Shown in pieces: positions 164 through 57,141 of a stretch of DNA of 58,004 bases. The notes beneath the pieces were generated by a model, which saw nothing but the letters and a program-made list of their open reading frames with translations, made no database searches and was not told the DNA's origin. This stretch comes from Akkermansia sp. (GTDB lineage Bacteria > Verrucomicrobiota > Verrucomicrobiia > Verrucomicrobiales > Akkermansiaceae), in contig JAFXCP010000030.1 of assembly GCA_017521405.1 (NCBI GenBank), forward strand, positions 1 through 58,004, in the 5' to 3' direction. The number at the start of each line of letters is the position of its first letter. Position 1 is the first letter of the stretch. The translations under genes were made by a program, and so were the position numbers.

Positions 164-192
164 TTCCTACCATACAACTCTGCATTTGGCAA
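164..192 (-). promoter_or_regulatory. Promoter of the secreted protein at the left edge
   Basis: TTGCCA at 187-192, a 17-base spacer and TAGGAA at 164-169. Six bases separate it from the ATG at 157. The -10 box is imperfect, so this rests mainly on the spacing shared with other promoters in the window. Confidence 0.4.
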
Positions 193-221
193 GCATATTT
201 CTTCATCTTGTACACATAGCT

Positions 222-2246
222 TCATTTTGATGAAGGCGCAAGAATACGCTCTACGTGTTCCAGAAGGAGGGAGGCGGCAAGCTCAGAACCATAACGGCTA
301 AGGTGATTCGTATCCCGATACAGGAACTTACCTTCACGACGGAGGGGGTATGTACCTTGAACGGACAATGCCGGACTAAGGCTCACACAGGTAGCAAGAC
401 CGGATTCCCGGACTTGGCGCATAAAGGCCTCCTCCGTGGCACAAGCCGCCGCATGCTGAGCAGGAGTTTGCTCCGGCAAGGGATAATCGAGACCAAGAAG
501 CTCGTGCCGCAGGAAACGGTTCACGTGGTTCGTACTGCGAGGCCAAAAGGGAGTATCCCGTACCACGATTACCTTTTTTCCCATCATTGTAAGGCGGCGG
601 CATGTTTCCAGCAATCCGTTTTCGAGATGGGTGCGAATATCCTCCCTAGGAATGCGCCGAAGATTCCAATCTCGCAAACTTCCCATGCAGAAGCGCAAGT
701 GCCAATAGTTAGAAATAATCACGCAGCGAATATCGGGGCGGGATTGCAGCCACTTCAGGAGAAGTTCTCCTTTTTGTCTATTCCAACGGGCATTTCCCCC
801 CTGTAGTTCCATAAAGCAATCCCATGCGGGAACACAGGAATTATTGAGGTAAAGTCCGCGAAGCCCGCCGCGAGTACGCAGGCACTTATCCATGCCATAA
901 TGAAGGTGCCATGCATGGCTATCGCCCAAAAGCAGGAAACTCACCGGGGCCTGCTTGTCTGAGCCTTCCAGCAAGGGGGTATGCTGAAACGCGGCCCTCG
1001 GGAAGCCTTGCAATTCTTTCTCAGTTGCCCTACCGCTTAAAATGGGATGACTATACTGCATTGTCTCCTCATCCATAGCATTCGGTAAGGCCCTCTGCAC
1101 CTCCACACAATACACAGGCAAGGCACATAAGAACGCTATGGGCACTAGCACCGCAGGAAGCAGCCATGCCGCTGTACGCGGAGAAAAACTCCGAAACCAC
1201 TGCATGCAGCGGCTTTCCACTCCACGCCAAAGCAACCAGGCTAAAAGCACCGAAAGGGCAAATAAAGCCACAGCTCCCGCCACGCTCTCCTTATCAAAGG
1301 TAACATAATCCCAGAGTGCAAAAATGGGCCAGTGAACAATATAAAGTGAAAAAGATACGGAACCCAATTGCTGCATGGGCTGCCAGCTCAGCAACCGCCC
1401 CATGGTGCCACTCTGACCATAACGCAAGAGCAGCATGGCACCCAACAAAACAGGGTATACACAGGCAGACCCCGTCTCCAGCCCATACATGGGAATAAGC
1501 ACCAATAACATTCCCGCCCATGCAGGCCAGCCCGGCCTTTTGGGCAAAGTACACCATGGCACAAGAAGCATTGCCAGAAGCGGCTCCCACAAACGTGTAA
1601 ATAAACTATAATAGGGGGGAAATATGTCCAATAAAGGCGTCACATAGGGCAACATACCGGGCCAATCCTCCCCATACTGCAAAAACACCGAAAGAGCGAG
1701 AGAACAAATTCCAACGCATCCCAGTACCGCATGGCGAATCCATACATTCAAACGCCGCATCACCAGAGCAAGTAAAGGAATAAGAATGTATAATTGCACT
1801 GTTAATCCCACATACCAAAAATGCATCAGCGGATTATCCTGCGTGGCCGGGTTGAAATAATCCCCACTGCGGGCCACATACTCATTACTCAAGCCAAGGG
1901 CACAATAGCCCAAGGTTTGCACCAACATCTCGTACAAATCCGGTTGGAGCAGCCAGGCCCCCGCCAGTGCCAAGGGACACCCCACGACCAAAACCGGAGG
2001 GCCAAGTCTCCATATTTTACGAAGCAAATAGGCTCCGTATCGCAGCTCCGGCAAGCGAGCGGGAGATAAGTCCCGGCTAAAGAGGAGGTATCCTGTAAGC
2101 AGGAGAAAAATATCTACACCAAAATAACCGCAGGGACATAATTCCTCGTTAAGGTGGTATAAAACCACAGCTAATATCGCCAAGGCTCGTAGGCCGTTGA
2201 TGTGCGGCATGAACCCTAAATTCTCCTGAGCTTTCTTGCGAGACAT
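222..2246 (-). CDS. Acyltransferase 3 family membrane protein with SGNH domain (OafA-type)
   Basis: This is a 674-residue protein of the OafA/YrhL type, which O-acetylates surface polysaccharide or peptidoglycan sugars. The N-terminal acyltransferase-3 half has the family start HINGLRALAILAVVLYH and the GYFGVDIFLLLTGYLL segment, followed by about ten membrane helices to residue 390 or so. The C-terminal third is a periplasmic SGNH hydrolase-like domain with GDSHAWH near the start and a DTNHLS catalytic block near the end, so both Ser and Asp/His blocks appear intact. The ATG at 2246 is chosen over a longer reading frame because the longer one runs through its own promoter and into the divergent rsmA promoter. 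The acylated substrate cannot be told from the sequence. Confidence 0.88.
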   Translation of the reverse strand: MSRKKAQENLGFMPHINGLRALAILAVVLYHLNEELCPCGYFGVDIFLLLTGYLLFSRDLSPARLPELRYGAYLLRKIWRLGPPVLVVGCPLALAGAWLLQPDLYEMLVQTLGYCALGLSNEYVARSGDYFNPATQDNPLMHFWYVGLTVQLYILIPLLALVMRRLNVWIRHAVLGCVGICSLALSVFLQYGEDWPGMLPYVTPLLDIFPPYYSLFTRLWEPLLAMLLVPWCTLPKRPGWPAWAGMLLVLIPMYGLETGSACVYPVLLGAMLLLRYGQSGTMGRLLSWQPMQQLGSVSFSLYIVHWPIFALWDYVTFDKESVAGAVALFALSVLLAWLLWRGVESRCMQWFRSFSPRTAAWLLPAVLVPIAFLCALPVYCVEVQRALPNAMDEETMQYSHPILSGRATEKELQGFPRAAFQHTPLLEGSDKQAPVSFLLLGDSHAWHLHYGMDKCLRTRGGLRGLYLNNSCVPAWDCFMELQGGNARWNRQKGELLLKWLQSRPDIRCVIISNYWHLRFCMGSLRDWNLRRIPREDIRTHLENGLLETCRRLTMMGKKVIVVRDTPFWPRSTNHVNRFLRHELLGLDYPLPEQTPAQHAAACATEEAFMRQVRESGLATCVSLSPALSVQGTYPLRREGKFLYRDTNHLSRYGSELAASLLLEHVERILAPSSK

Positions 2247-2256
2247 AACCGCAGCC

Positions 2257-2314: not shown

Positions 2315-2343
2315 TTGCTAAAAGAGCCGCCAACCGCTACAAT
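2315..2343 (+). promoter_or_regulatory. Promoter of the rsmA-Nudix gene
   Basis: TTGCTA at 2315-2320, a 17-base spacer and TACAAT at 2338-2343. The start codon follows 12 bases later, so the 5' leader would be only about six bases. Confidence 0.6.
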
Positions 2344-2355
2344 GCTGCGGATAAT

Positions 2356-3708
2356 ATGAACGCAACGCAAATTCGTCAGGTCTTGGAAAGCACCGGAGTT
2401 ATTCCCTCCAAATCAATGGGGCAAAATTTTCTGGTGGATGAGAACATAGCCCGCTGGATTGTGAGCCAACTGGAAATTCAGCCGGAAGATTGCGTTGTGG
2501 AAGTAGGACCCGGCACAGGAGCTCTTACGGAACACATGGCCCCCCTTTGCCGCAAATTGATATTGGTGGAGTTCGATGCAAGACTGGCCGAGTACCAACG
2601 ACAGCGCTGGGCAGAAACGCCCCATGTAGAGGTATACCATGCCGATGGTGCCAGCTGGGACCCCCGCCCGCTTTTCAAGGAACAGCCGGTCAAGTTTATG
2701 GGAAATCTACCCTATTCCGCCGGCGGAGCTATTCTGGCTAATTTTCTTACGTCTCCTTGCGCTGTTTCCCGCGCCGTTGTCATGCTGCAAAAAGAATTTA
2801 TTGATCGGATTCTTGCCCGTCCGGGGGACGAGGCCTATGGTTTACTCTCGCTGAGGCTCCAGATGGATTGGGTACCCCGAGCCCTCAAGACCGTACCGCC
2901 GGAAGCCTTCAACCCACGCCCGAAGATAGATTCCACCGTCATGCTGCTCACCCCGCGGGATGCTCGCGAACTGCCACCCTACGACCATCGTTTGATGGAC
3001 GAGCTGATGCGGCGCTGTTTTTCCCAGCGCCGCAAGCAAATGCACAAGCAACTGCCGGAAACACCACCCTGGGCCGAGGTATCCGCCGGCTTAGGCATCT
3101 CCCCTACGGCGCGGCCGGAGGAGCTGGGGCTGGAACAATGGGTAAAACTCACCAATGCGTATGACCCACACCCGCTGGCCGGCATTCCCCAGAAAGAGGA
3201 AGAACTATTCGATGTGGTGAACGAAGCGGATGAAATCCAAGGGCAAGCCACTCGAAAGGAGGTGCATGAACATGGGCTCATGCATCGTGCCGTTCATATC
3301 CTCGTATTCAATAAGAAACACGATTGTCTGCTGCAACTGCGTTCCCCTTTGAAAGACCGCCACCCGGGTGTATGGGATTCCTCTGCAGCAGGTCATCTGG
3401 ACGCCGGAGAGGATTATGAGACTGCTGCCCGCCGGGAACTGGCGGAGGAATTAGGAATCGAAGACGCCCGCATAATTCATCTGGGGAACTTGCCCCCCAC
3501 CCCGGAAACGGGTATGGAACACGTAGCTCTCTATGCGGCCTTATACAATGGGAAGGTACATTTTCCGGCAGCAGAAATCTCCGGGGTACTCCCCTTCCCG
3601 GCAGCTCTTATCGATGAATGGCTGGAACGCCGCCCGCAGGACTTTGCAAACTCCTTTGCTGCATGCTGGCGAATTGCTCGCACCATGCTGGGCAATGCAG
3701 AAGAATAA
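2356..3708 (+). CDS. rsmA: 16S rRNA dimethyladenosine transferase RsmA fused to a Nudix hydrolase
   Basis: This is a 450-residue two-domain protein. Residues 1-270 are RsmA (KsgA), which dimethylates two adjacent adenosines near the 3' end of 16S rRNA. Visible motifs are GQNFLVD at 22-28, the SAM-binding EVGPGTG at 49-55 and the catalytic NLPY at 117-120. Residues 283-450 are a Nudix hydrolase with a complete Nudix box (G346, E352, R360-E361, E364-E365, G367). Its lead-in DVVNEADEIQG resembles the YfcD/isopentenyl-diphosphate-isomerase-like Nudix group. RsmA is normally about 270 residues and stands alone, so the C-terminal half is an addition. The ATG at 2356 gives the standard RsmA N-terminus and lies just behind the promoter. 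The gene ends four bases from the convergent murJ stop. RsmA activity is near certain. The Nudix substrate is unknown. Confidence 0.93.
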   Translation: MNATQIRQVLESTGVIPSKSMGQNFLVDENIARWIVSQLEIQPEDCVVEVGPGTGALTEHMAPLCRKLILVEFDARLAEYQRQRWAETPHVEVYHADGASWDPRPLFKEQPVKFMGNLPYSAGGAILANFLTSPCAVSRAVVMLQKEFIDRILARPGDEAYGLLSLRLQMDWVPRALKTVPPEAFNPRPKIDSTVMLLTPRDARELPPYDHRLMDELMRRCFSQRRKQMHKQLPETPPWAEVSAGLGISPTARPEELGLEQWVKLTNAYDPHPLAGIPQKEEELFDVVNEADEIQGQATRKEVHEHGLMHRAVHILVFNKKHDCLLQLRSPLKDRHPGVWDSSAAGHLDAGEDYETAARRELAEELGIEDARIIHLGNLPPTPETGMEHVALYAALYNGKVHFPAAEISGVLPFPAALIDEWLERRPQDFANSFAACWRIARTMLGNAEE

Positions 3709-11551: not shown

Positions 11552-11580
11552 TTGCGTCTACCACGGGAGGGGCGTATAGT
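11552..11580 (+). promoter_or_regulatory. Leaderless-type promoter of tdh
   Basis: TTGCGT at 11552-11557, a 17-base spacer and TATAGT at 11575-11580. The ATG follows after seven bases. The GGGAGG in the spacer would not be transcribed, so it cannot act as a ribosome binding site. Confidence 0.65.
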
Positions 11581-11587
11581 TTGCCGC

Positions 11588-12619
11588 ATGAAAGCACTTG
11601 TGAAAACACGGGCCGACAAGGGACTGGAGCTGATGGATGTTCCCATGCCCGAAGTGGGACCGAACGATGTACTGATTAAAATTCACAAAACAGCCATTTG
11701 CGGCACGGATCTTCACATTTGGAACTGGGATAGTTGGGCACAGCAAACCATCCCGGTAGGCATGCATGTGGGGCATGAATTCTGCGGTGTGGTGGAAAAA
11801 GTGGGCTCCGGCGTGAGCGAATACAAACCCGGCGATGTGGTTTCCGGCGAGGGGCATATTGTGTGCGGCCACTGCCACAACTGCCGCAAGGGGCTTTTCC
11901 ACCTTTGCCCGAACACCAAGGGTGTGGGCGTAAACCGCCCCGGTTGCTTTGCGGAGTATCTTTCCATTCCCCAGAGCAATGTTATCCGCATTCACAAGGA
12001 TATGCCCATGGAAATCGCCTCCATTCTGGACCCTCTGGGAAATGCGACTCATACCGCACTTTCTTGGGATTTGGTGGGCGAGGATGTGCTGATTACCGGA
12101 GCAGGACTCATCGGCTCCATGGCTGCCGCCGTATGCAAAAAAGCCGGAGCACGCACCGTCACCATCACGGACGTGAGCGATTTCAAACTTAATCTGGCTC
12201 GCACCATGGGAGCAGACCGCACCGTAAACGTTATCTCCGGGGACAGCATTGCCGCCGCTCGCGAGGATTTGGAAATTACGGAAGGCTACGGCGTATGCCT
12301 CGAAATGAGCGGCGCCCCTGCATGCCTGAAAGACATCATCACCCACTCTGCATATGGGGCCAATATCTCCCTGCTGGGCATCCAACCCGGCGGTTCCGGC
12401 ATCGATTGGAACACATTTGTATGGAAAGGTTTGAAGATGAAAGGAATCTATGGGCGCGAAATGTTCGGCACATGGCAAAAAATGGATGCCATGCTTCGCT
12501 CCGGCTTGGATGTTTCCCCCATCATCACCCACCGTCTCCCCTACACCAGTTTCCACGAAGGCTTCGAGGTGATGGCATCCGGTAAATCCGGCAAGGTTAT
12601 TTTGGACTGGACGGTTTAA
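11588..12619 (+). CDS. tdh: L-threonine 3-dehydrogenase
   Basis: This 343-residue zinc alcohol dehydrogenase family enzyme oxidises threonine to 2-amino-3-oxobutyrate with NAD. The catalytic zinc site is seen in AICGTDLHIWNWD (Cys38) and VGHEFCG (His-Glu). The structural zinc lobe has the four-cysteine pattern CGHCHNCRKGLFHLC. The nucleotide site is GAGLIGSMAAA. The length and the IWNWDSWAQQTIPVGMHVGHEF stretch are typical of Tdh rather than sorbitol dehydrogenase. The start is fixed by MKALVKTR and the promoter. It is transcribed divergently from hom-lysC and followed by an intrinsic terminator. No kbl partner lies next to it. Confidence 0.94.
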   Translation: MKALVKTRADKGLELMDVPMPEVGPNDVLIKIHKTAICGTDLHIWNWDSWAQQTIPVGMHVGHEFCGVVEKVGSGVSEYKPGDVVSGEGHIVCGHCHNCRKGLFHLCPNTKGVGVNRPGCFAEYLSIPQSNVIRIHKDMPMEIASILDPLGNATHTALSWDLVGEDVLITGAGLIGSMAAAVCKKAGARTVTITDVSDFKLNLARTMGADRTVNVISGDSIAAAREDLEITEGYGVCLEMSGAPACLKDIITHSAYGANISLLGIQPGGSGIDWNTFVWKGLKMKGIYGREMFGTWQKMDAMLRSGLDVSPIITHRLPYTSFHEGFEVMASGKSGKVILDWTV

Positions 12620-13149: not shown

Positions 13150-13653
13150 TTAGGCAATGGGGGAGGCCTTAGGCTTCACCACAGCAATACGACCGGAACG
13201 AGTCAGCATGTCCACATCGTAATCCTGCATCAAATCCAGGAAACGGGACAAACGGAACTGACCTCCGCAGATTTCCAGTGTAAGCATCTCGCGGGTAGCA
13301 TCCAGCACCTTCCCGCCAAAAATGTTGCAAAGCTCGAGTATTTCCTGCTTTTTCTCACCAAAGCGCACACGAATAAGCACAACTTCGCGGTAAATTGTCG
13401 GCTCGTTGCGGTAATCGATAACCTCTACCACATTCACCAGTTTGCTAAGTTGCTTAATCACCTGGTCCAGCTTATCGCTTTCCTCGCGCACGGCAATCGT
13501 CATGCGGGAGAAGCGGGTATCCTCACAAGGAGCCACATTCAAAGAGTGAATATTGTAACCACGCCCGGAGAACAACCCTGCTACGCGAGAAAGCACACCG
13601 AACTTATTCTCAACCAAAACGGAAATGGTATTAATCTGGGAAATAGTAGGCAT
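13150..13653 (-). CDS. ilvN: Acetolactate synthase small (regulatory) subunit
   Basis: This is a 167-residue regulatory subunit for the first shared step of valine, leucine and isoleucine synthesis. The N-terminal ACT domain is visible as ISVLVENKFGVLSRVAGLFSGRGYNIHSLNV, the classic IlvN/IlvH block, followed by the second ACT-like half and a length normal for the family. It binds and activates the catalytic subunit and confers valine inhibition. The large subunit gene (ilvB) is not next to it or elsewhere in this window, which is unusual. The ATG at 13653 is chosen by family alignment. A promoter lies 29 bases upstream. Confidence 0.94.
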   Translation of the reverse strand: MPTISQINTISVLVENKFGVLSRVAGLFSGRGYNIHSLNVAPCEDTRFSRMTIAVREESDKLDQVIKQLSKLVNVVEVIDYRNEPTIYREVVLIRVRFGEKKQEILELCNIFGGKVLDATREMLTLEICGGQFRLSRFLDLMQDYDVDMLTRSGRIAVVKPKASPIA

Positions 13654-13682
13654 GGCGTATCGGGGGATAAATTTCGGTCTTG

Positions 13683-13711
13683 AAAATACCTGATTCTGCA
13701 AGGGACGTCAA
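13683..13711 (-). promoter_or_regulatory. Promoter of ilvN
   Basis: TTGACG at 13706-13711, a 17-base spacer and TATTTT at 13683-13688. The 29-base distance to the ATG gives ilvN one of the longest leaders in this window. Confidence 0.5.
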
Positions 13712-15261: not shown

Positions 15262-15290
15262 TTGCCACCCTGCGGGATTGCGAGTAAAAT
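15262..15290 (+). promoter_or_regulatory. Promoter of glnS
   Basis: TTGCCA at 15262-15267, a 17-base spacer and TAAAAT at 15285-15290. The ATG lies nine bases further, so the transcript would carry at most a few leader bases. Confidence 0.65.
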
Positions 15291-15299
15291 CGCGCGCAT

Positions 15300-16976
15300 A
15301 TGGCAACAGAGGAGAAAAAGGATTTCATCCGCGAAATGATAGTGGAGGATTTGGAGAAGGGATACTGCAAAGTACCTATTACACGCTTCCCCCCGGAGCC
15401 GAACGGTTACCTCCACATTGGCCACGCCAAAGCCATTTGCTTAGATTTTGGCCTAGCTAAAGAATATGCCCACCTCGGGGCAGTGTGCCACCTGCGCTTC
15501 GATGATACGAACCCCTGTAAGGAAGATATCGAATTCGTCAATTCCATCCAAGAGGACATCCACTGGCTCGGATTCGACTGGGGAGAGCATCTCTACTGGG
15601 CTTCCAACATTTTTGATTTTTACTACGATTGTGCCGTAGCTCTCATCAAAAAAGGTCTGGCCTATGTGGATTTTCAGGATCGCGAAACCATGCGCCAGCA
15701 GCGCGGAAACCTCGTTACGCCCGGTATCGAATCCCCCTATCGCCATACCACGGTAGAGGAAAACCTTGCCTATTTTGAAGCTATGAAACGCGGCGATTAT
15801 GCCGAGGGGGCCGCCGTACTCCGGGCTAAAATTGACATGGCCAGCAGCAACATGAACATGCGCGACCCCGTCATCTACCGCATTTCCTACGACCACCACC
15901 ACAACACAGGTAACAGCTGGTGCATCTACCCCATGTACGACTTTGCCCACCCGTTGGAAGATGCCTACGAGCATATTACCCATTCCCTCTGTACGCTGGA
16001 GTTTGAGAACCACCGCCCTCTTTACGAATGGGTTATTGATAACTGCCCTGTGCCGGCGCGTCCCAAACAGCGGGAATTCTCCCGTCTGAACATCACCTAC
16101 ACCGTGATGAGCAAACGTAAACTCCGCCAAATGGTGGAAGAAGGTCATGTGGCCGGGTGGGATGACCCCCGCATGCCTACCATTTGCGGCATGCGCCGCC
16201 GCGGTTACCCGGCTAAAGCCATCGTCAACTTCTGTGAAGGCGTAGGCATTACCAAATTTAATGGTAATACGGACGTAGCACGTCTGGAAAACGCTGTACG
16301 CAACGAGTTAAACGCCACTGCAGAACGCCGCATGGCCGTACTTAACCCGCTCAAACTCATTCTCACCAACGTTCCCGAGGATTTCGAGGAAGAGGTGGAA
16401 GTACTCATTAACCCGGAACAACCGGAACTGGGCAACCGCAGCCTTACCCTTACCCGCGAGGTTTGGATTGAACAGGACGATTTCATGGTAGAGCCGCCCA
16501 AGAAGTACAAGCGCCTCTCCCCCGGTGCCTGTGTGCGCCTGCGTGGCGGCTACTGCATGATTTGTACCGGTTACACAGCCGATGCTGATGGCAAGGTAAC
16601 AGAGGTACAAGCGGAAATCATCCCCGGTACCGTAGGCACGAACCCGCCCGAAGGCATCAAGTGCAAGGGTGCTATCCACTGGGTATCTGCCCGCTATGGC
16701 GTACAGGCAGAGGTGCGCTTGTATGACCGTCTTTTCAAAGACGAAGCACCGGATGCCAATGAGGAGGGCTTCTTGGCCTCCCTGAATGCGGATTCCCTCA
16801 CCGTGCTGAAAAACGCCATGGTGGAGCCCGCACTGGCAGCTGCACCGGCAGAATTTCTCTGCCAGTTCGAACGCATAGGCTACTTCGTGGCAGACCGCTA
16901 TGACCACAGCACGGAACACCCCGTGTTCAACCGCTCTGTGGGGCTGCGCGATTCGTGGGCCAAGATGAATAAATAA
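15300..16976 (+). CDS. glnS: Glutaminyl-tRNA synthetase
   Basis: This 558-residue class I aminoacyl-tRNA synthetase charges tRNA-Gln directly. The signature PPEPNGYLHIGHAKAICLDFG, containing the HIGH motif, is at about residues 32-52, and the KMSKS equivalent appears as VMSKRKL near 265. The C-terminal two beta-barrel anticodon-binding domain follows (from about 340), with the PKKYKRLSPG segment. Length and motifs match the E. coli enzyme. Direct glutaminylation implies no need for the GatCAB route for Gln here. It is followed by ribBA after seven bases. Confidence 0.97.
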   Translation: MATEEKKDFIREMIVEDLEKGYCKVPITRFPPEPNGYLHIGHAKAICLDFGLAKEYAHLGAVCHLRFDDTNPCKEDIEFVNSIQEDIHWLGFDWGEHLYWASNIFDFYYDCAVALIKKGLAYVDFQDRETMRQQRGNLVTPGIESPYRHTTVEENLAYFEAMKRGDYAEGAAVLRAKIDMASSNMNMRDPVIYRISYDHHHNTGNSWCIYPMYDFAHPLEDAYEHITHSLCTLEFENHRPLYEWVIDNCPVPARPKQREFSRLNITYTVMSKRKLRQMVEEGHVAGWDDPRMPTICGMRRRGYPAKAIVNFCEGVGITKFNGNTDVARLENAVRNELNATAERRMAVLNPLKLILTNVPEDFEEEVEVLINPEQPELGNRSLTLTREVWIEQDDFMVEPPKKYKRLSPGACVRLRGGYCMICTGYTADADGKVTEVQAEIIPGTVGTNPPEGIKCKGAIHWVSARYGVQAEVRLYDRLFKDEAPDANEEGFLASLNADSLTVLKNAMVEPALAAAPAEFLCQFERIGYFVADRYDHSTEHPVFNRSVGLRDSWAKMNK

Positions 16977-18398: not shown

Positions 18399-18427
18399 TT
18401 CCCAGAAAATCTACCTTCCTTTATAAT
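18399..18427 (+). promoter_or_regulatory. Candidate promoter of ftsH
   Basis: A consensus TATAAT at 18422-18427 with TTCCCA 17 bases upstream at 18399-18404. The ATG is 27 bases after the -10 box. The -35 match is weak. Confidence 0.5.
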
Positions 18428-18454
18428 ACAGAGAAAAAGCTCTGAATACCCACT

Positions 18455-22579: not shown

Positions 22580-22607
22580 TTGACTCCCCTACCGATTTTT
22601 TTATAAT
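22580..22607 (+). promoter_or_regulatory. Leaderless-type promoter of the SDR gene
   Basis: TTGACT at 22580-22585, a 16-base spacer and a consensus TATAAT at 22602-22607. The ATG at 22614 follows after six bases. Confidence 0.72.
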
Positions 22608-22613
22608 GCGGGT

Positions 22614-32026: not shown

Positions 32027-32055
32027 TTGCCAGAAGCCTTCCCTCGGTGTATGTT
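32027..32055 (+). promoter_or_regulatory. Leaderless-type promoter of menF
   Basis: TTGCCA at 32027-32032, a 17-base spacer and TATGTT at 32050-32055, with seven bases to the ATG at 32063. An apparent TTG start at 32027 is the -35 box itself. Confidence 0.5.
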
Positions 32056-32062
32056 AGGGGGC

Positions 32063-33825: not shown

Positions 33826-33831
33826 GCTCCT

Positions 33832-33860
33832 ATGTTAGGCTCTTTACCTCACCATGTCAA
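33832..33860 (-). promoter_or_regulatory. Leaderless-type promoter of the small secreted protein
   Basis: A consensus TTGACA at 33855-33860, a 17-base spacer and TAACAT at 33832-33837. The ATG follows after six bases. An AGGAG motif occupies that gap but would not lie inside the transcript. Confidence 0.72.
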
Positions 33861-37711: not shown

Positions 37712-39247
37712 TTAATCCATGTTCCCGCCATTCGGATTCTGCAACACTTCCAGAGTAACGCCGGCAGTGTGGCGGATAATTGAATCCGGGTGGTCTATAA
37801 ACTTTTTCACAACGGGGACCGCCTCTGCATTACCATAGCGCTGCAGATGGTTCAAAATGGCACCTATAAGGCGTATGCTGGCATTGGGGCGCAGCTTAGC
37901 CAAAAGGGCGGCCTGTGCACGCACACCCAGCTGGGACATGGCAGCGTCCCACGCAATGGGATTCTCGCACCAGAAGTCCACCACGGGGGCTATCATCTCC
38001 TTAGCGGATTCGCGGATGAGATAGTGAGTGATGCTCGGGTCAACGTCTTTCTTCAAGGTGCGGCGATTTTCAAAATAGCGAAGGCAGTGTTTCACCGCAA
38101 CTTTGTCTCCGGGATTTGTATAGGTTACCAGAGCCTGTATAAGCTCCTTGTAGGTGTCTTGGTCCGAGGCCCACGGCTCAGCAAGAACTTTCAGCAAAGC
38201 TTCACGAATTTCCGGACGAAGTACCTGTACGTTAGCGTTGGAAAGAGAGCGCGCTGCAATGCGAATCCGCATGGGGTCTATGCAGCTAAGCTCCTTAATG
38301 TTAGCGGTAACAAAGGAGGGATTCAACGGAGAGGTAAGCACATCCGGGGAGTACTGGCTGATAAGATTAGCCTTTTCCGCATCGAACTTCACTTCGTAAA
38401 CTCCATCATCGGGGCGAGCATAGACCACCGTACCAAAGCGAGACAGGAAGGCACTCAAGTTCTGGGAACGGCGAGGGATGTTGGATATCACATAGAGAGC
38501 ACCGTTAGCTCTCGTATACGCACGAGTAAATTCGGCCTCCAAAATGCGGCAGAAAGCATCCCGCATCAGGGAGCGGGTACGACTATCCTGATTATCGATG
38601 AAAACGCCATAATGAGTAAGCTGAGGTACCATTTTCTTATGCTGGTAGTACACCTGCATATCCGAGTCCTTCAGGTAAGGCTGACCGGGAGAAGACTCAT
38701 CCGCAGCACCGGCTGCAGCAGCTCGTTGGCGAGCCATATACTCGTTCATGTCCACCTTGCGTTCCTCCTGCCATACTTCCGGCATAAACCAACCGGCTCC
38801 CAGCATAATCAGAGCAATGGGATATACTACCATTTTACGACGCGAGGAAGAGGAGATGACCAACACCGCCGCCACGGCACAGACTATCATAGCAATCACC
38901 CGCTGGGATTCCACGTCCATGCCATCCACACCGGAACCCATCTCATTTTTCACACCTATGAGCATGAAAATAAAGGCACATGCCACGAACATGAGCATAC
39001 CCAGCAGGAAACGCACCTTCCCACTGGAGCTAAATGCCTCACCGGTTTTATAAGCGCGCCCCATGGCAGCCGCTCGCTCTTCCTGACGTTTGTTGCCACG
39101 GCGATATTGCTCCACCAATTCCTTATATTCCTCCGCATCCAGACGGCGGGCAGATGAAAACTCATTTTTCAGGCAATCCGGGCACACCACTACATCTGGC
39201 CTTACCGGTCTGAAGAGTTTACCACATTTCGAACACTCAACATCCAT
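37712..39247 (-). CDS. Zinc-ribbon membrane protein with helical repeat domain, unknown function
   Basis: This is a 511-residue protein. The N-terminus is a four-cysteine zinc ribbon (Cys5, Cys8, Cys22, Cys25; CSKCGKLFRPVRPDVVVCPDC). Three membrane helices follow at about residues 77-95, 115-130 and 140-155. The remainder is exported or cytoplasmic with an alpha/beta segment (YGVFIDNQDSRTRSLMRDAF) and C-terminal HEAT-like helices ending in a hydrophobic VIRHTAGVTLEVLQN. The ATG at 39247 is used because the alternative at 39256 overlaps the -10 box. It heads the operon with the transglutaminase-like and thioredoxin-fold genes. Confidence 0.7.
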   Translation of the reverse strand: MDVECSKCGKLFRPVRPDVVVCPDCLKNEFSSARRLDAEEYKELVEQYRRGNKRQEERAAAMGRAYKTGEAFSSSGKVRFLLGMLMFVACAFIFMLIGVKNEMGSGVDGMDVESQRVIAMIVCAVAAVLVISSSSRRKMVVYPIALIMLGAGWFMPEVWQEERKVDMNEYMARQRAAAAGAADESSPGQPYLKDSDMQVYYQHKKMVPQLTHYGVFIDNQDSRTRSLMRDAFCRILEAEFTRAYTRANGALYVISNIPRRSQNLSAFLSRFGTVVYARPDDGVYEVKFDAEKANLISQYSPDVLTSPLNPSFVTANIKELSCIDPMRIRIAARSLSNANVQVLRPEIREALLKVLAEPWASDQDTYKELIQALVTYTNPGDKVAVKHCLRYFENRRTLKKDVDPSITHYLIRESAKEMIAPVVDFWCENPIAWDAAMSQLGVRAQAALLAKLRPNASIRLIGAILNHLQRYGNAEAVPVVKKFIDHPDSIIRHTAGVTLEVLQNPNGGNMD

Positions 39248-39254
39248 GGGTATC

Positions 39255-39283
39255 ATTATAACAAAAAGTCCGCACTATGGCAA
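39255..39283 (-). promoter_or_regulatory. Leaderless-type promoter of the zinc-ribbon operon
   Basis: TTGCCA at 39278-39283, a 17-base spacer and a consensus TATAAT at 39255-39260, with seven bases to the ATG at 39247. An upstream in-frame ATG lies within the -10 box and is excluded. Confidence 0.72.
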
Positions 39284-47051: not shown

Positions 47052-48572
47052 TTAATAGCTACGAGCCCAAAGCACACGGCGAGTAGTGGGGCGCCCCGTC
47101 AAAATACAGGGAGCCTCCGGACCTGTTCCCATCTCACCATGGGGAATGCAGCGGATGGAGATGCGGAGGCTCTTGGCAAGGGTTTCCTCCTCCTCCGGGC
47201 TACCATCCCATGGGCAGAGCAACCAATCGGCATCGCCCTCGCCGGAGAAATTGGCCTGCAATTCCTCCATCGTGGCACAGGGGCGAATATGGCTATCTCG
47301 GAAATCCCGCTGGCGTTTAAGAAGACTATTCTGGATATCCTCCAGTAGTTCCACAGCTCCGGCAAGGAAATCGGCCTCCGGGAGGAAGGTTTTCTCATTT
47401 GTGGGCAAATCTCTGCGGCTGAGGCACACAGAGCCTTTCTCCAAATCGCGGGGGCCGATTTCGAGGCGCACGGGAACCCCCTTCTTAATCCACTCCCATT
47501 TCTTAGTCCCGCCATTAAGATCGCGTGTATCAACAATCACGCGCAACGGCATCCCATGAAAACTCATAGTAGAAAGCTTATCCGCAAGCTCTTGGCAATG
47601 AGTAAGAATCGACTCGAGGGTATCCGCCTTAGGAGTCACAGGAATAATCACGATTTGGCGAGGAGCCACGCGTGGCGGGCAAACCAAGCCATCATCATCC
47701 GAGTGAGCCATAATAAGCGTACCAATCATGCGCGTGGAAACACCCCACGAGGTGGTCCAAGCATACTGGCGTTCATTATTACGACCGGCAAACGAGATGT
47801 TCTGAGCCTTGGCAAAGTTCTGCCCGAGGAAGTGGGACGTGCCGGCCTGAATGGCCTTGCGGTCCTGCACCATGGCCTCCACGGTAAAGGTACGCACGGC
47901 ACCGGGGAAACGTTCGTGTTCTGTCTTTTCTCCGGGGATGGAGGGTACGGCCAGCACATCTCGCTGGAAGTCCTCGTACACCTTGTGCATAATGGCTGTT
48001 TCCTCCTCGGCCTCCTCGCGGGTCTCGTGGGCGGTATGCCCCTCCTGCCAGAGGAATTCAGCAGTACGGAGGAAGATGCGAGGACGCATTTCCCAGCGCA
48101 TCACATTGCACCACTGGTTCACCTTGAAGGGGAGGTCGCGGTAGGATTCGAGCCAGCGGGAGAAAGCTGCACCGATAACGGTTTCGGAAGTTGGACGAAT
48201 CACATATTTATCCGTAAGCTCCCCGGAGGGAATCATGCGGGTTTTACCTGTTTCCGGGTCTTTAACGGCCTCGAGGCGGTGGTGCGTCACCACGGCGCAC
48301 TCTGTGGCAAACCCCTCTGCATGTTCTGCCTCCTTTTCCAGATAGGAAACAGGAATCAGCATGGGGAAGTAGGCATTGGTATGCCCGGTGCGCTTAAATT
48401 CAGCATCAAGCTGCTGCTGAATGAGTTCCCAGATAGCGTAGCCCCACGGTTTGATGACCATGCAACCACGGACTTCGGAATTTTCAGCCAAATCGGCAGC
48501 TTTGATGACTTGCTGGTACCACTCGGGGAAATCCTCAGCACGAGTCGGAGAAATAGCGTTCTGTTGAGCCAT
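47052..48572 (-). CDS. proS: Prolyl-tRNA synthetase, type 3 (archaeal/eukaryotic-like)
   Basis: This 506-residue class II synthetase charges tRNA-Pro. It begins with the type 3 pattern DFPEWYQQVIKAADLAENSEVRGCMVIKPWGYAIWE and lacks the large editing insertion of the bacterial type 1 enzyme. Motif 2 reads VNQWCNVMRWEMRPRIFLRTAEFLWQEGHTAH, and motif 3 lies in the GTLIMAHSDDDGLVCPPRVAP region. The C-terminal tyrosine of the family is present (ARSY). A leaderless-type promoter lies directly upstream. Confidence 0.96.
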   Translation of the reverse strand: MAQQNAISPTRAEDFPEWYQQVIKAADLAENSEVRGCMVIKPWGYAIWELIQQQLDAEFKRTGHTNAYFPMLIPVSYLEKEAEHAEGFATECAVVTHHRLEAVKDPETGKTRMIPSGELTDKYVIRPTSETVIGAAFSRWLESYRDLPFKVNQWCNVMRWEMRPRIFLRTAEFLWQEGHTAHETREEAEEETAIMHKVYEDFQRDVLAVPSIPGEKTEHERFPGAVRTFTVEAMVQDRKAIQAGTSHFLGQNFAKAQNISFAGRNNERQYAWTTSWGVSTRMIGTLIMAHSDDDGLVCPPRVAPRQIVIIPVTPKADTLESILTHCQELADKLSTMSFHGMPLRVIVDTRDLNGGTKKWEWIKKGVPVRLEIGPRDLEKGSVCLSRRDLPTNEKTFLPEADFLAGAVELLEDIQNSLLKRQRDFRDSHIRPCATMEELQANFSGEGDADWLLCPWDGSPEEEETLAKSLRISIRCIPHGEMGTGPEAPCILTGRPTTRRVLWARSY

Positions 48573-48578
48573 AGCGGG

Positions 48579-48606
48579 ATTTTAGTAATTAAAATGTGAT
48601 TGTCAA
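48579..48606 (-). promoter_or_regulatory. Leaderless-type promoter of proS
   Basis: A consensus TTGACA at 48601-48606, a 16-base spacer and TAAAAT at 48579-48584, with six bases to the ATG at 48572. It is one of the clearest examples. Confidence 0.78.
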
Positions 48607-48615: not shown

Positions 48616-49314
48616 TCAATAGGGAGCCTGACTATAAAAGCGTTGATTCAGGAAAGCCAGCATCACCATAAATACAGCCATGAGCCACATCCCGGCCACA
48701 CAAAAGAAAGCCGTAAAGAGACATGCGGCACAAAAGCTAATGGAGTGCATAAGGCGGGGAGATTTCATAAGACCATGCATAATCTGCCCCCCATCCAGAG
48801 GAAAAACGGGCAGTAAGTTCAAAATAGTCCACCAGCAGGCAACCTCCACCAAGTAGAAGAAAAAGAACATCGCCATAGGAGGGCACAGAGAAAGAGCCTC
48901 CACCGGCATCTGCCCCACCATGAAACGGGACGCCAAGGAGAAGGCCTTAGGCACATCCTGCAAATATAAACCCAGCACCAGTGTGGCCACAACGGCTAAT
49001 AATACCGTTGCCAAAGGACCGGCTGCCGTCATAATCACACCTTGTATGCGAGTAAGGCGAGCCTCCGTATTCGAGCAATCTCCGCCCATCCACGCAAGGT
49101 ATACATGGGGATGTCCCCCCCCCAAACGACGCCCCACAATAGCATGCCCGAATTCATGAACCAACAGGCAGATAAATGCAGCTATAATAAAAAGTGCCAC
49201 GCTCAAAAACTCCGCCATGCTGGAAATTCCGACAGCTCCGCCAAGAAGAGCTAAAGTGAGCCACAGAGTGGGATGAATACTCACGGGAATGCCAAAGAGG
49301 GAAAATCGAATCAT
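48616..49314 (-). CDS. M50 family intramembrane zinc metalloprotease (site-2 protease type)
   Basis: This is a 232-residue polytopic membrane protein. The first metal motif is HEFGH in the second helix (LLVHEFGHAIVGRRLGG), and the second is NLLPVFPLDGGQ near residue 170, so the site is complete. Five to six membrane helices are visible. There is no PDZ domain, so it belongs to the short S2P group. The natural substrate is unknown. The ATG at 49314 is chosen because the in-frame ATG at 49323 lies in the -10 box. Confidence 0.88.
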   Translation of the reverse strand: MIRFSLFGIPVSIHPTLWLTLALLGGAVGISSMAEFLSVALFIIAAFICLLVHEFGHAIVGRRLGGGHPHVYLAWMGGDCSNTEARLTRIQGVIMTAAGPLATVLLAVVATLVLGLYLQDVPKAFSLASRFMVGQMPVEALSLCPPMAMFFFFYLVEVACWWTILNLLPVFPLDGGQIMHGLMKSPRLMHSISFCAACLFTAFFCVAGMWLMAVFMVMLAFLNQRFYSQAPY

Positions 49315-49321
49315 CGTTCTC

Positions 49322-49350
49322 ATTCTAAAGAGCCATACACGATGATACAA
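49322..49350 (-). promoter_or_regulatory. Leaderless-type promoter of the M50 protease
   Basis: TTGTAT at 49345-49350, a 17-base spacer and TAGAAT at 49322-49327, with seven bases to the ATG at 49314. It points away from the menD promoter. Confidence 0.65.
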
Positions 49351-49442: not shown

Positions 49443-49471
49443 TTGCAGCCCGGAGAAATGCGTGTTAGAAT
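49443..49471 (+). promoter_or_regulatory. Leaderless-type promoter of menDBC
   Basis: TTGCAG at 49443-49448, a 17-base spacer and TAGAAT at 49466-49471. The ATG at 49478 follows after six bases. Confidence 0.68.
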
Positions 49472-49477
49472 GCGGGC

Positions 49478-51085
49478 ATGAGCTTGATAAGCGACAAGGG
49501 TGTAATTCAACAATTAGCCACCCTCATGTGCGCGCACGGCATTTCCCGCTGCGTTCTATGCCCGGGAAGCCGGAATTCTCCGATTGTAGGCACGCTGGCT
49601 GCACTTCCCGGCATGGAATGCCGAAGCATATGCGATGAGCGGAGTGCCGGGTTCGTAGCACTGGGGTGGGCTTTACAATGCGGAGAACCGGTAGCAGTGT
49701 GCGTAACATCCGGCTCAGCCTTACTGAACCTTCATCCTGCTGTGGCAGAAGCCGGTTACCGCCATGTTCCCCTGCTCATCCTCTCGGCAGACAGACCGGC
49801 AGCATGGATTGGTCAACAGGATGGGCAAACACTCCCCCAGCCCGGAGTGTATGGAACGCTGGTACGTTTTTCCGCCCAGCTTCCGGAAGAGGACTCGTGG
49901 CACGCAAATAGAATCATCAACGAAGCGATGTTGGCTCTTCGCCATCGAGCCGGAGGACCTGTGCATCTGAACATCCCCCTCACGGAACCCTTTTTCGGCA
50001 TGAGCGAGCAGCCCTTACCTTCCGTGAGAATCATCCGCCGAACGGAAGCAGCCCGCATGACGGCAGATGATGAAACTGCGCTGCTCGCAGAAATAGCCGC
50101 ATGCCCTCGCCGCATGCTCCTTCTGGGGCAAATAGCCACCCTGCCGAAACTGCCGCTGGAGGAATTGAAGAAAAAAGGATTTGTAATCATCGGGGAGCAT
50201 CTTTCCCAACTGGGGCAGCAGGGAATCACCCGGCCGGATACCCTGCTGGGAACGCAGTTAAAATCCTGCATGGCACCGGACATCCTCATCACGTACGGCG
50301 GAGATATTATCTCCAAACGGATGAAAAGGCTTCTGCGCAGCTATCCTCCCCGACAGCACTGGCACATTACCCAAGACGGAACTGTGGTGGATACCTTCTG
50401 CTGCGTAACACGTATTCTGGAAGGGGAACCTGCGGAATTTCTGGAAATGGTGGCAGCCTTTGCAGAGGAAGGCGATGCCGATTTCCCCAAAATTTGGTAC
50501 ACGCCACCCACTACTTTTCCCCGAGAGGCCTATTGCGGCATGAGCCTAGTGGGCGATGTGCTGGAAAAAATACCCGCCGGCAGCGTACTGCACCTGGGCA
50601 ACAGCTCCGCCGTGCGGTATGCACAGCTCTTCCCCCTGCCACCGGGCATTCGCGTGGAATGCAACCGGGGAGTCAATGGCATTGAAGGCTCTCTCTCCAC
50701 GGCCTTGGGCTATGCCGCCGCCGCGCCGGAACAGCTGCACATCATCATCATAGGCGATTTGAGCTTCTTTTACGATGTAAATGCCCTACTGGCCTTCCGA
50801 GAATTGACGAACGTGCGCATTCTCCTGCTCAACAATCACTGTGGCGGAATTTTCCACCTCTTGCCCGGTATTCCCACTGCCCCGGAAGTATCTGCTCCGC
50901 ACGGACTTTCTGCCGAAATCTGCATTCCCGCCGGCATGCATTATATCCAAGTACACCACGCCGAAGATTGGGCAAAGACACTACCGATACTTCTGTCAAC
51001 CACGCCGGGCGCCGTCCTGGTGGAAGCATTCACAGAAGCATCGCAGGATGCCTCTCTTCTGAAAAAGTTTTATAACCACCACTAA
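49478..51085 (+). CDS. menD: SEPHCHC synthase (menaquinone biosynthesis)
   Basis: This 535-residue thiamine diphosphate enzyme joins isochorismate and 2-oxoglutarate to form SEPHCHC. It has the three-domain layout: the N-terminal block [13 protein letters not shown] and [14 protein letters not shown] with the catalytic Glu region, and the C-terminal cofactor block [20 protein letters not shown] with [17 protein letters not shown]. Length fits the family. It heads the menD-menB-menC operon, with nine bases or fewer between genes. menF lies 16 kb upstream. Confidence 0.94.
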
Positions 51086-55163: not shown

Positions 55164-55177
55164 ATGCTCAAATCTTG

Positions 55178-57097
55178 TTAGGGTTTCCACTCTGTGGCGC
55201 AAGCATCCGAAGGCATACACCAATCCGCACGCGGAGATAACGCAACACTGCCCACCTTCGGACCATCCGGCACACAACTGCGTTTAAATTGCTGCGTAAA
55301 GAAACGGCGAAGGAACATTTCCAAAGTGCGCCCTATAAGCTCCTCACTATACTCCCCGGCAAAAGCCGTTTGAGCCAGTACACGCAGCTTAGTAGGCTCC
55401 GCTCCATACTTGATGAAATGGTACAGCAAGAAATCGTGAATATCGTAAGGTCCCAGAATATCCTCCGTTTTCTGATCCATCGTGCCATCCTCCGCAGGTG
55501 GCAGAAGCTCCGGGCTTACCGGCGTATCAATCACATCCTGCAAAGTGGCCGCCAACTCCTTCCCGCAGGAAGCTGCCTCATACGCAAGCAAACTGCGGAT
55601 GAGAGATTTGGGAACATCACAATTCACACCATACATGCTCATATGGTCCCCATTGTATGTAGACCAGCCCAAAGCAACCTCCGACAAATCCCCCGTCCCC
55701 ACCACCATACCGCCCGTTTTATTCGCCAGATTCATAAGAATCTTCGTACGTTCCCGAGCCTGCACATTTTCATAGGTATTAGTTCTCAGCGAAGGATCAA
55801 AATCTAAATCCCTGAAGTGCAGCAGGCATGCCTCCTTAATATTGATTTCCTTAAAAGAAGCCCCCACAAGACGTATCATCTCCACGGCATTGCGGTAAGT
55901 GCGACCGGTGGTACCAAACCCCGGCATCGTAACAGCTAAAATGCTTTCCGGACTTATTTCCAATAGCTTGCACACTCTCGCACACACCATAAGTGCCAGC
56001 GTGCTATCCAACCCACCGGAAATACCTATCACCATCGTACGTGCATGCGAATGCTGCACACGGCGGGCAAGAGCAGCCGCCTGCATGGATAGAATCTCCT
56101 CGCAACGCTCCTCCATTTCCTCCTCTGCCGGAACAAAAGGACGCGGAGGCAACCACGCATATGACAAATCACAGCAGCCGTCCAAACGGCTCAACACAAC
56201 CCGACGATATGGCGGCAAGGCCAGCCGTGCGCGGCAATCATTAAATGAACTCTCCCCCATACGCACATACGCCAGACGCTGCACATCCACATCAGCATAA
56301 GTAAGGCTACCCTTTTGTTCAAAACACGCAGATTCCGCCACAATTCGTCCGTTTTCCGCCACAAGTGAATGCCCACTGCATACACCATCCTGCGTACTTT
56401 CACCCACCCCGGCAGAAGACATGGCATACACAGCCATACAACGAGCACTCTGCTGCTTTACAAGCGCACGGCGCTTGGAAGCACCACCGGCTTGCTCATA
56501 TTCGGCGGAAAGATTAAAGACCACGCAAGCCCCTTGCAACACCCCGGCAGAGCTGGGCGGCATCACACTCCTCGCATCGTCACCCACCTCCACACAAAAG
56601 ACCAAATCCCCCCCATCACTGAAAAGAAGATTCGTCCCCAGCGGCACTTCGCCAAACCCGGGCAAGGCAACCTCGGACACTCCGCTTAGCTCCCGAGCAG
56701 GGCGGAACCAACGAGCCTCGCCCGCAGCACGGTGGCAAGGAACTTCACTCTTCGGCACCACACCCAGCACCCGTCCGCGCTGCACCACAACTGCCACATT
56801 GAACAAAGCCGTACCCACCACCAACGGCATCCCCAGCAACACCACAACATTAAGCCGCGCCGTTTCTGCGGCAAAATGAGTTAAGCCCCGCAAAGCGGCT
56901 TGCTGTAAACGCGGTTGGAAAAACAAATCGCCGCAACTTGCCCCGGTAAGGCACAGCTCCGGGCACGCAACCACATGCGCTCCGCCCTTGGCTGCAGCCT
57001 TTGTGCACTGCACCAACTCCTCCACATTGAACGAAACATCAGCCACACGCACGCGCGGCGTCACGACGGCCAAACGGTAATATCCGTATGTGCTCAT
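55178..57097 (-). CDS. nadE: Glutamine-dependent NAD+ synthetase
   Basis: This 639-residue two-domain enzyme makes NAD from deamido-NAD and ATP using glutamine. Residues 1-300 form the nitrilase-type glutaminase, with GGAHVVACPELCLTGASCGDL containing the catalytic Glu/Lys/Cys framework and ACVVFNLSAEYEQAGGASKRRALV. Residues 330-639 are the NAD synthetase, with the PP-loop GISGGLDSTLALMV and GTGDLSEVALGWSTYNGD. The length is that of the large bacterial form. It has its own promoter and leads nadE-rppH-trmO-hydrolase. Confidence 0.95.
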   Translation of the reverse strand: MSTYGYYRLAVVTPRVRVADVSFNVEELVQCTKAAAKGGAHVVACPELCLTGASCGDLFFQPRLQQAALRGLTHFAAETARLNVVVLLGMPLVVGTALFNVAVVVQRGRVLGVVPKSEVPCHRAAGEARWFRPARELSGVSEVALPGFGEVPLGTNLLFSDGGDLVFCVEVGDDARSVMPPSSAGVLQGACVVFNLSAEYEQAGGASKRRALVKQQSARCMAVYAMSSAGVGESTQDGVCSGHSLVAENGRIVAESACFEQKGSLTYADVDVQRLAYVRMGESSFNDCRARLALPPYRRVVLSRLDGCCDLSYAWLPPRPFVPAEEEMEERCEEILSMQAAALARRVQHSHARTMVIGISGGLDSTLALMVCARVCKLLEISPESILAVTMPGFGTTGRTYRNAVEMIRLVGASFKEINIKEACLLHFRDLDFDPSLRTNTYENVQARERTKILMNLANKTGGMVVGTGDLSEVALGWSTYNGDHMSMYGVNCDVPKSLIRSLLAYEAASCGKELAATLQDVIDTPVSPELLPPAEDGTMDQKTEDILGPYDIHDFLLYHFIKYGAEPTKLRVLAQTAFAGEYSEELIGRTLEMFLRRFFTQQFKRSCVPDGPKVGSVALSPRADWCMPSDACATEWKP

Positions 57098-57112
57098 AAT
57101 CTTTCTGCCCCT

Positions 57113-57141
57113 ATATTGCCAGAATCCCATCCCGGCGTCAA
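57113..57141 (-). promoter_or_regulatory. Promoter of nadE
   Basis: TTGACG at 57136-57141, a 17-base spacer and CAATAT at 57113-57118. Fifteen bases separate it from the ATG at 57097. Confidence 0.5.

What the first reader, a model, noticed from the sequence alone, without database searches (positions are those of the whole stretch)
164..57141. Window-wide leaderless promoter architecture
About two dozen genes have a -35 (TTGxxx) and -10 box with a 16-18 base spacer. In about fourteen the -10 box ends six to eight bases before the start codon: the left-edge gene, the GTG lipoprotein, tdh, SDR, fucosidase, recJ, thioesterase, menF, small secreted protein, zinc-ribbon protein, deacetylase, proS, M50 protease and menD. 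Transcription normally starts about seven bases after the -10 box, so these mRNAs would begin at or within a base or two of the start codon. The rule also rejects alternative starts inside -10 boxes (39256, 49323) or at -35 TTGs (13798, 32027). Leaderless mRNAs are known from actinobacteria and archaea. I am not aware of this being described as general in this phylum.
Basis: partly seen in the sequence, partly recalled or inferred. Interest (0 to 1): 0.85.

Follow-up and report, generated by a model that had tools for sequence, protein, structure and literature searches.

The report
Leaderless gene promoters in gut Akkermansia
In this gut bacterium (an Akkermansia relative) roughly a fifth of the genes that begin an operon have their promoter right against the start codon, so their messenger RNAs should begin at or within a few bases of the coding sequence; this was already measured at a lower level in Akkermansia muciniphila, but it looks more common in this branch of the genus.

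Summary
All 14 promoters named are present (-10 box 6-8 bases before the start codon). In 775 kb of the genome, TTG-16..18-TANNNT at 5-8 bases occurs at 30 of 536 genes, against 1.7 +/- 1.4 in shuffles; 26 of the 30 are operon heads. With start choice allowed, 63 of 302 heads carry a strong promoter at 5-9 bases (shuffled 0.5). Shine-Dalgarno motifs are at background. The base before ATG is a pyrimidine in 48 of 52 such genes, as expected if transcription starts on that A. In proS the promoter stays 6-10 bases from the start in 16 of 16 clade orthologs, and codons vary mostly synonymously from codon 2. The genome belongs to Akkermansia. Leaderless transcripts are published for A. muciniphila: 10% of mapped 5' ends (PMC4782308). 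So it is known in the genus, and patchy in the phylum. New here: 43 of 57 genus genomes show 8 times the d 2 and 4 times the d 22 control count, the other 14 only 1.4 times. No RNA data exist here for this clade.

The parts
155..192 (-). Promoter of left-edge gene: -35 TTGCCA, spacer 17, -10 TAGGAA, d 6, ATG at 157
   Evidence: 9.7 bits
13814..13851 (+). Promoter of GTG lipoprotein: TTGACG, 17, GATGAT, d 6, GTG at 13849
   Evidence: 6.8 bits (weakest)
11552..11590 (+). Promoter of tdh: TTGCGT, 17, TATAGT, d 7, ATG at 11588
   Evidence: 9.5 bits; ortholog in L003 d 7; family
22580..22616 (+). Promoter of SDR oxidoreductase: TTGACT, 16, TATAAT, d 6, ATG at 22614
   Evidence: 12.6 bits; family
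25980..26019 (-).
Evidence: 10.9 bits; orthologs L001 d 6, L002 d 8.
31199..31237 (-). Promoter of recJ: TTGACG, 18, TAGGAT, d 6, ATG at 31201
   Evidence: 8.7 bits; orthologs L153 d 6, L159 d 7; family
31265..31303 (+).
32027..32065 (+). Promoter of menF-like gene: TTGCCA, 17, TATGTT, d 7, ATG at 32063
   Evidence: 11.2 bits; chorismate-binding domain
33823..33860 (-).
   Evidence: 12.8 bits; no Pfam match
39245..39283 (-).
   Evidence: 16.1 bits
43799..43838 (-). Promoter of polysaccharide deacetylase: TTGCCT, 18, TAATAT, d 7, ATG at 43801 (43810 lies in the -10 box)
   Evidence: 10.0 bits; family
48570..48606 (-). Promoter of proS: TTGACA, 16, TAAAAT, d 6, ATG at 48572
   Evidence: 13.1 bits; kept in 16 of 16 clade orthologs; N-terminal codons; family
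49312..49350 (-). Promoter of M50 peptidase: TTGTAT, 17, TAGAAT, d 7, ATG at 49314 (49323 lies in the -10 box)
   Evidence: 11.2 bits; 10 of the 10 clade orthologs that passed the filter have it at d 7-11; family
49443..49480 (+). Promoter of menD: TTGCAG, 17, TAGAAT, d 6, ATG at 49478
   Evidence: 13.7 bits; family
15262..15302 (+).
   Evidence: 16.0 bits; orthologs L001-L003 d 7; family
2315..2358 (+). Short-leader promoter of the + gene at 2356: TTGCTA, 17, TACAAT, d 12
   Evidence: 13.1 bits
46869..46913 (-). Short-leader promoter of ftsK: TTGCGG, 17, TATAAT, d 13, ATG at 46871
   Evidence: 11.9 bits; family
18399..18457 (+). Leadered promoter of ftsH: TTCCCA, 17, TATAAT, d 27, ATG at 18455 (contrast case)
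   Evidence: 11.8 bits; orthologs L001 d 26, L002 d 24
13651..13711 (-). Leadered promoter of ilvN: TTGACG, 17, TATTTT, d 29, ATG at 13653 (contrast case)
   Evidence: 9.2 bits

Best explanation
These are ordinary sigma-70-type promoters (about TTG[CA][CA]A, 17 bases, TAnAAT) placed so that RNA polymerase starts on, or within a few bases of, the A of the start codon. The mRNAs of about a fifth of operon-first genes are therefore leaderless or nearly so (d 5-9), and about an eighth more have leaders of a few bases (d 10-14). They must be translated without a Shine-Dalgarno helix, most likely by recognition of the 5'-terminal AUG by fMet-tRNA on the ribosome. The genome sample as a whole lacks Shine-Dalgarno motifs while relatives keep the anti-SD in 16S rRNA, so leadered genes start SD-less too. 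The arrangement occurs across the genus and is strongest in the clade of this window. Shown: the motif, its position, its enrichment, its conservation and the missing SD. Inferred: exact 5' ends, and the mode of ribosome binding.
For: Position-specific excess. EM motif with d peaks at 6 and 9; posterior 0.20 of heads at d 5-9 and about 0.125 at d 10-14. Clade genomes not used for training: 10 of 30, 8 of 20 and 40 of 137 heads with 9 bits or more at d 5-9, shuffled 0, and 1, 2 and 1 at d 25-29 (the 137 are largely orthologs of one region). Outgroups: gamma 1 of 139, Clostridia 3 of 131, delta 1 of 122 heads. SD motif at 4-10: 66 of 536 genes (12.3%, background 10.5%) vs 110 of 192, 189 of 214 and 140 of 180 in those outgroups. 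Pyrimidine at -1: 48 of 52 (d 5-9) vs 90 of 141 heads without promoter (P 5.5e-5), 97 of 135 operon-internal (P 0.003) and 18 of 28 at d 10-14 (P 0.004). Conservation of proS, M50 and glnS promoters next to the start. Mostly synonymous codon change from codon 2 of proS. Measured leaderless 5' ends in A. muciniphila.
Against: No 5'-end data for this clade. Many detected promoters are not at this distance: of 119 heads with 9 bits or more within 120 nt, 55 have d of 15 or more. d varies from 6 to 10 between proS orthologs, so 'exactly leaderless' cannot be claimed for each. Pyrimidine at -1 is also fairly common elsewhere: 39 of 50 genes with a promoter at d 15 or more; and in other clade genomes the excess is weaker (44 of 51 vs 46 of 66). 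In G000, 21 of 302 heads also score 9 bits or more at d 25-29 when any start is allowed. The weight matrix was trained on the same genome; the groups not used for training are the check. Gene calls are from my own simple codon model.
Confidence: 0.87

Rival explanations
1. Ultra-short leaders rather than leaderless: transcription starts 6-8 bases after the -10 box whatever the distance to the ATG, so d 8-14 genes have 1-8 nt leaders and only d 5-7 genes are strictly leaderless.
For: d is spread over 6-14 with two peaks; orthologs of one gene differ in d (6-10 for proS); pyrimidine at -1 is 18 of 28 at d 10-14 and 5 of 8 at d 8.
Against: At d 9 pyrimidine at -1 is 16 of 17, which suggests that the start site shifts to the A of ATG there.
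Confidence: 0.4
2. The promoters are real but the true translation start is a later codon, so the mRNAs have normal leaders.
For: Heads have 3.8 candidate starts on average near the called one.
Against: proS of 20 clade members keeps M(A/S)QQ(N/H)AI from codon 1 with mostly synonymous changes from codon 2 (one gene examined so); no SD is found upstream of called starts; re-choosing among starts raises the count from 45 to 63 heads against 0.5 in shuffles.
Confidence: 0.05
3. Chance or selection by the reader: many hexamers and many start codons give some fits.
For: An unpositioned consensus scan of 1-20000 shows no excess (13 vs 15.0).
Against: 30 of 536 vs 1.7 in shuffles with starts chosen without regard to promoters; whole-genome count 30 at d 6 vs 5 at d 2 and 7 at d 22.
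Confidence: 0.01
4. It is a general property of the phylum Verrucomicrobiota.
For: 127 genomes of other classes: 911 matches at d 6 vs 582 at d 2, with d 6 above d 2 in 84 and below in 32; some families stand out (f21 32 vs 1, f22 24 vs 3, f24 82 vs 32, f32 23 vs 5, f45 17 vs 2).
Against: 44 genomes of the window's own class outside its order: 87 vs 92; family f9, 18 genomes, 5 vs 5; f18, 28 genomes of another class, 196 vs 171. Order relatives 2 of 93 and 0 of 121 heads. The pattern is strict and would miss weaker promoters, so absence of leaderless genes in those groups is not shown.
Confidence: 0.08

Closest known systems
Leaderless transcripts of Akkermansia muciniphila (Cappable-seq of mouse caecum, PMC4782308)
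   Same: Same genus; -35 and -10 boxes and YR start motif; 10% of 5' ends (886 high-confidence positions) lie at the annotated start of a gene.
   Different: That is 5' ends, this is sequence. The window's genome has the architecture more often: 63 of 302 heads with 9 bits or more at d 5-9, vs 8 of 181 in G061, a genome of the low-count group; by the -10 box alone the excess is 12.0% of 302 vs 5.0% of 213 heads.
TA-led (leaderless) genes of Zheng et al. 2011 (PMC3160421) in Actinobacteria and Deinococcus-Thermus
   Same: TANNNT about 12 bases before the start codon, counted from its first T (passages).
   Different: Different phylum; here a clear -35 box and an AAT core are present; medium G+C (window 54%).
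SD-scarce translation with intact anti-SD (PMC10783764 passages; Flavobacterium johnsoniae, PMC6847099, abstract start only)
   Same: SD motifs at background while CCTCC is kept in 16S rRNA of relatives; Akkermansia is listed as SD-scarce.
   Different: That class is defined by weak SD pairing, not by leader length; here a sizeable share of operon heads seem to lack a leader.

Membership tests
Leaderless (TA-led) genes | TANNNT-like -10 box about 10-12 bases (first T) before the start codon, above chance | tested here: met
Leaderless (TA-led) genes | No Shine-Dalgarno motif | tested here: met
   66 of 536 (12.3%) vs background 10.5%, all genes together
Leaderless (TA-led) genes | Start codon next to the promoter is the true translation start | tested here: met
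   proS N-terminal codons in 20 clade members; only this gene was examined in this way
Leaderless (TA-led) genes | Primary 5' end at the start codon | not testable with these tools
   no RNA data; only indirect support from pyrimidine at -1. Measured in A. muciniphila by others
Leaderless (TA-led) genes | Translation without leader | not testable with these tools
   needs reporter or ribosome profiling
Sigma-70-type promoters | -35 TTGACA-like, spacer about 17, -10 TATAAT-like | tested here: met
   EM matrix, started from that consensus: TTG at 0.92/0.88/0.86, TA 0.84/0.88, last T 0.88, spacer 17 in 74%
Shine-Dalgarno-led genes | GGAG/AGGA/GAGG 4-10 bases before the start above background | tested here: not met
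   the anti-SD is intact in 26 loci of 11 low-count genomes and in G223, the one high-count genome in which a 16S gene was found; not testable in G000, whose assembly has no 16S match

The most novel reading that the evidence does not exclude
Within one genus of gut bacteria, a whole clade has moved the majority of its detectable operon-head promoters to within 14 bases of the start codon (63 of 119 in G000 and 53 of 74 in clade loci not used for training, 41 at d 5-9 in each), while its sister lineages have far fewer (7 of 28). Leaderless or near-leaderless initiation would then be the leading mode for first genes, in cells that keep ribosomal protein S1 and, where it could be read, an intact anti-SD. 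This would be a recent, clade-specific shift in translation initiation that can be dated and compared pair by pair.
Probability: 0.45. Interest if true: 0.6.

Novelty: new member of a known kind. Interest (0 to 1): 0.42.

Why it matters
If confirmed, gene starts in this clade need re-annotation (an ATG inside TATAATG is a false start), expression constructs for Akkermansia could put the promoter against the ATG, and the genus offers near relatives that differ in how often genes are leaderless, so that the causes and costs of the switch can be tested.

Tried and rejected
Unpositioned promoter scan: no excess, uninformative. Loss of the anti-SD as the cause: not supported, CCTCC intact in the 26 loci of 11 low-count genomes and in G223; only one high-count genome had a 16S match and G000 has none, so for G000 it is untested. 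Loss of ribosomal protein S1 as the cause: not supported, rpsA over the cut-off in 49 of 57 genus genomes including G000; the other 8 (drafts of 70-170 contigs) gave fragments or weak matches only. Strict pattern counts as a measure of leaderlessness between groups: they overstate the difference, because the low-count group has weaker -35 boxes (-10-only excess 12.0% vs 5.0%). EM on small sets other than G000 fitted noise (motif fraction 0.94-1.00 in several, and 0.54-0.71 on shuffled G000 heads, though at far lower likelihood) and was not used. Orthologs of menD, SDR, thioesterase, menF, the small secreted protein, the zinc-ribbon protein, the deacetylase, ftsK, recN, hom and ECH passed no filter in the loci searched (matches starting after residue 12, or with under 70 nt upstream, were dropped), and two entries (lipoprotein, ilvN) used wrong coordinates: not counted. 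CobA, a gene without a near promoter in the window, had one ortholog, also without. Papers: searches; PMC4782308 passages and section 11; PMC3160421, PMC10783764 and PMC9683900 passages (the last irrelevant); PMC6847099 only the listing and start of abstract.
Full report
WHAT IT IS FROM. The window is a whole contig (C25) of a 1.99 Mb, 38-contig genome, G000; G+C of the window 54%. Its glnS protein is 92%, 94% and 85% identical to three named Akkermansia drafts (water buffalo caecum, goat rectum and one labelled Lapin) and 64% or less to the other Verrucomicrobia listed. 24 genomes are placed in the same genus. The phylum is therefore Verrucomicrobiota, genus Akkermansia.

THE OBSERVATION. All fourteen named promoters were found: spacer 16-18, d 6 (7 cases), 7 (6 cases) or 8 (1 case). 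Scores run from 6.8 to 16.1 bits with a matrix learned from the genome. The start codons at 39256 and 49323 are inside -10 boxes, and 32027 is a -35 TTG; 13798 is not the -35 in use (that is 13814).

IS IT MORE THAN CHANCE. I called genes with a simple codon model that does not look upstream, in 775,321 bases (window and 40 stretches): 563 genes, 536 with at least 70 nt upstream. TTG-16..18-TANNNT at d 5-8: 30 of 536 vs 1.7 +/- 1.4 in 200 dinucleotide shuffles (most 7). Operon heads: 26 of 302 vs 1.1. Operon-internal: 1 of 162 vs 0.2. Upstream of 1482 in-frame internal ATGs TANNNT shows no peak. By distance the counts peak at d 6 (16) and d 9 (15), stay at 3-7 in between and up to 14, then run at 0-4. 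An EM model started from the E. coli consensus put 13% of heads at d 5-8 and 19.5% at d 9-14. If any in-frame start near the called one is allowed, 63 of 302 heads have 9 bits or more at d 5-9 (mononucleotide shuffles: mean 0.5, most 1 of 8); 45 with the called start alone. Whole genome, strict pattern TTG-N20-TANNAT-N6-ATG: 30, against 5 at d 2 and 7 at d 22.

OTHER GENOMES. With the same matrix and rule, genomes of the clade not used for training gave 10 of 30, 8 of 20 and 40 of 137 heads; G013, next to the clade, 3 of 13; low-count genomes 8 of 181, 2 of 28 and 0 of 27; order relatives 2 of 93 and 0 of 121; named Verrucomicrobia loci 1 of 56; G053 2 of 44; gamma 1 of 139, Clostridia 3 of 131, delta 1 of 122. 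The 137 come from one orthologous region and are not independent. In G000 the same rule at d 25-29 gives 21 of 302, in the three clade sets 1, 2 and 1.

WHERE DOES TRANSCRIPTION START. No RNA data are available. Indirect evidence: published 5' ends in this genus show a pyrimidine-purine start (PMC4782308). In d 5-9 genes the base before ATG is a pyrimidine in 48 of 52, against 90 of 141 heads without a promoter, 97 of 135 operon-internal genes and 18 of 28 at d 10-14 (Fisher P 5.5e-5, 0.003, 0.004); at d 15 or more it is 39 of 50, so the contrast with that group is small. By distance: d 6 22 of 22, d 7 18 of 21, d 8 5 of 8, d 9 16 of 17. The excess is weaker in the other clade genomes (44 of 51 vs 46 of 66). 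So the A of ATG is the likely start at d 6, 7 and 9; for d 8 and d 10-14 a leader of a few bases is as likely.

IS THE ATG THE REAL START. In proS of 20 clade members codons 2-12 change mostly by synonymous bases, so codon 2 onward is translated. The promoter (9.6 bits or more) stays 6-10 bases from this ATG in 16 of 16 clade orthologs although the bases between differ; none of 4 genus members outside the clade reaches 7 bits. The M50 gene keeps it (9.2 bits or more) at d 7-11 in the 10 clade orthologs that passed the filter (34-63% protein identity), and G013 has it too (16.1 bits, d 9), the three others 6.0 bits at d 6-7; glnS has it at d 7 in the 3 named Akkermansia drafts and not in 3 order relatives.

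TRANSLATION. SD-like tetramers at 4-10 are at background (66 of 536, 12.3% vs 10.5%), in contrast to 57%, 88% and 78% in gamma, Clostridia and delta loci. The anti-SD CCTCC is intact in 26 loci of 11 low-count genomes and in G223, the only high-count genome with a 16S match. S1 is over the cut-off in 49 of 57 genus genomes. SD scarcity of Akkermansia was reported before (PMC10783764).

HOW FAR DOES IT REACH. In 57 genus genomes the strict count at d 6 splits them: 43 with 15-58 (sum 1617; d 2 203; d 22 388) and 14 with 4-11 (sum 94; 68; 68). The split was made on the d 6 count itself, so it needs an outside check: of 19 genomes that are also in the proS tree, the 15 in one clade (20 rows, support 100/100) are all high, G013 beside it is high (21), and G004, G015 and G017 outside are low; only 3 of the 14 low genomes are in the tree. 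The strict pattern exaggerates the contrast, since the low group has weaker -35 boxes: by the -10 box alone the excess at d 5-9 is 12.0% of 302 heads vs 5.0% of 213, with pyrimidine at -1 in 40 of 44 and 11 of 12. The low group thus seems to have leaderless genes too, in line with the 10% measured in A. muciniphila. In the wider phylum (193 genomes): 44 of the same class 87 vs 92; 4 of the same family or order 27 vs 17; 127 of other classes 911 vs 582 (d 6 vs d 2). So it is patchy, with no excess in the window's own class outside the order.

HOW COMMON IN THE GENOME. Of 270 heads with at least 60 nt of intergenic space, 119 have a promoter of 9 bits or more within 120 nt: 1 at d 0-4, 41 at 5-9, 22 at 10-14, 9 at 15-24, 29 at 25-49, 17 at 50-120 (shuffled 5 in all). 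In clade loci not used for training: 74 of 165, with 41 at d 5-9 and 12 at 10-14 (shuffled 7). In the low group: 28 of 211, with 6 and 1 (shuffled 6). So leaderless is frequent but not universal, and for over half of the heads no promoter was found by this rule.

WHAT IS KNOWN. Cappable-seq of mouse caecum found 10% of A. muciniphila 5' ends at annotated starts, 15% in Bifidobacterium pseudolongum and 0.4% in E. coli. Leaderless genes were predicted across bacteria from TANNNT signals (PMC3160421). I saw no paper in the held library on this clade or on how far leaderless genes extend in the phylum (listings); the library lacks most subscription papers and all bioRxiv preprints.

VERDICT. Observation confirmed; interpretation right in kind, but already shown for the genus and patchy in the phylum. 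What is added is a quantitative, clade-resolved picture and corrected start codons.

Noticed in passing
genus genomes: The genus falls into two groups by promoter-to-start distance; G013 (3.2 Mb, count 21) and G223 (15) are between.
   Followed up: partly
G000 heads: A second peak of -10 boxes at d 9, nearly as high as that at d 6, with a pyrimidine before ATG in 16 of 17; start-site choice ten bases after the -10 box would be at the far end of what I recall for E. coli.
   Followed up: partly
G000 starts without a near promoter: A at position -3 is common (42% in heads without promoter and in d 15+ genes, against 21% at d 5-9), like the Kozak-like context that I recall for Bacteroidetes.
   Followed up: no
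L237 (G223), 16S rRNA 3' end: GGATCACCTCC reads GGACCACCTCC in the only high-count genome with a 16S match; may be an assembly error.
   Followed up: partly
families f21, f22, f24, f32, f45 of other classes: Distant members of the phylum with an excess at d 6; G053 (f24) sampled loci keep SD motifs (20 of 81 genes, 24.7% vs background 3.5%).
   Followed up: partly
19 genes listed: Starts probably called too far upstream, in 16 because an ATG, GTG or TTG lies inside the promoter, for example TATAATG.
   Followed up: partly
window 41063-42598: One frame matches uroporphyrinogen-III methyltransferase (8-254) and uroporphyrinogen-III synthase (260-506), a fusion.
   Followed up: no
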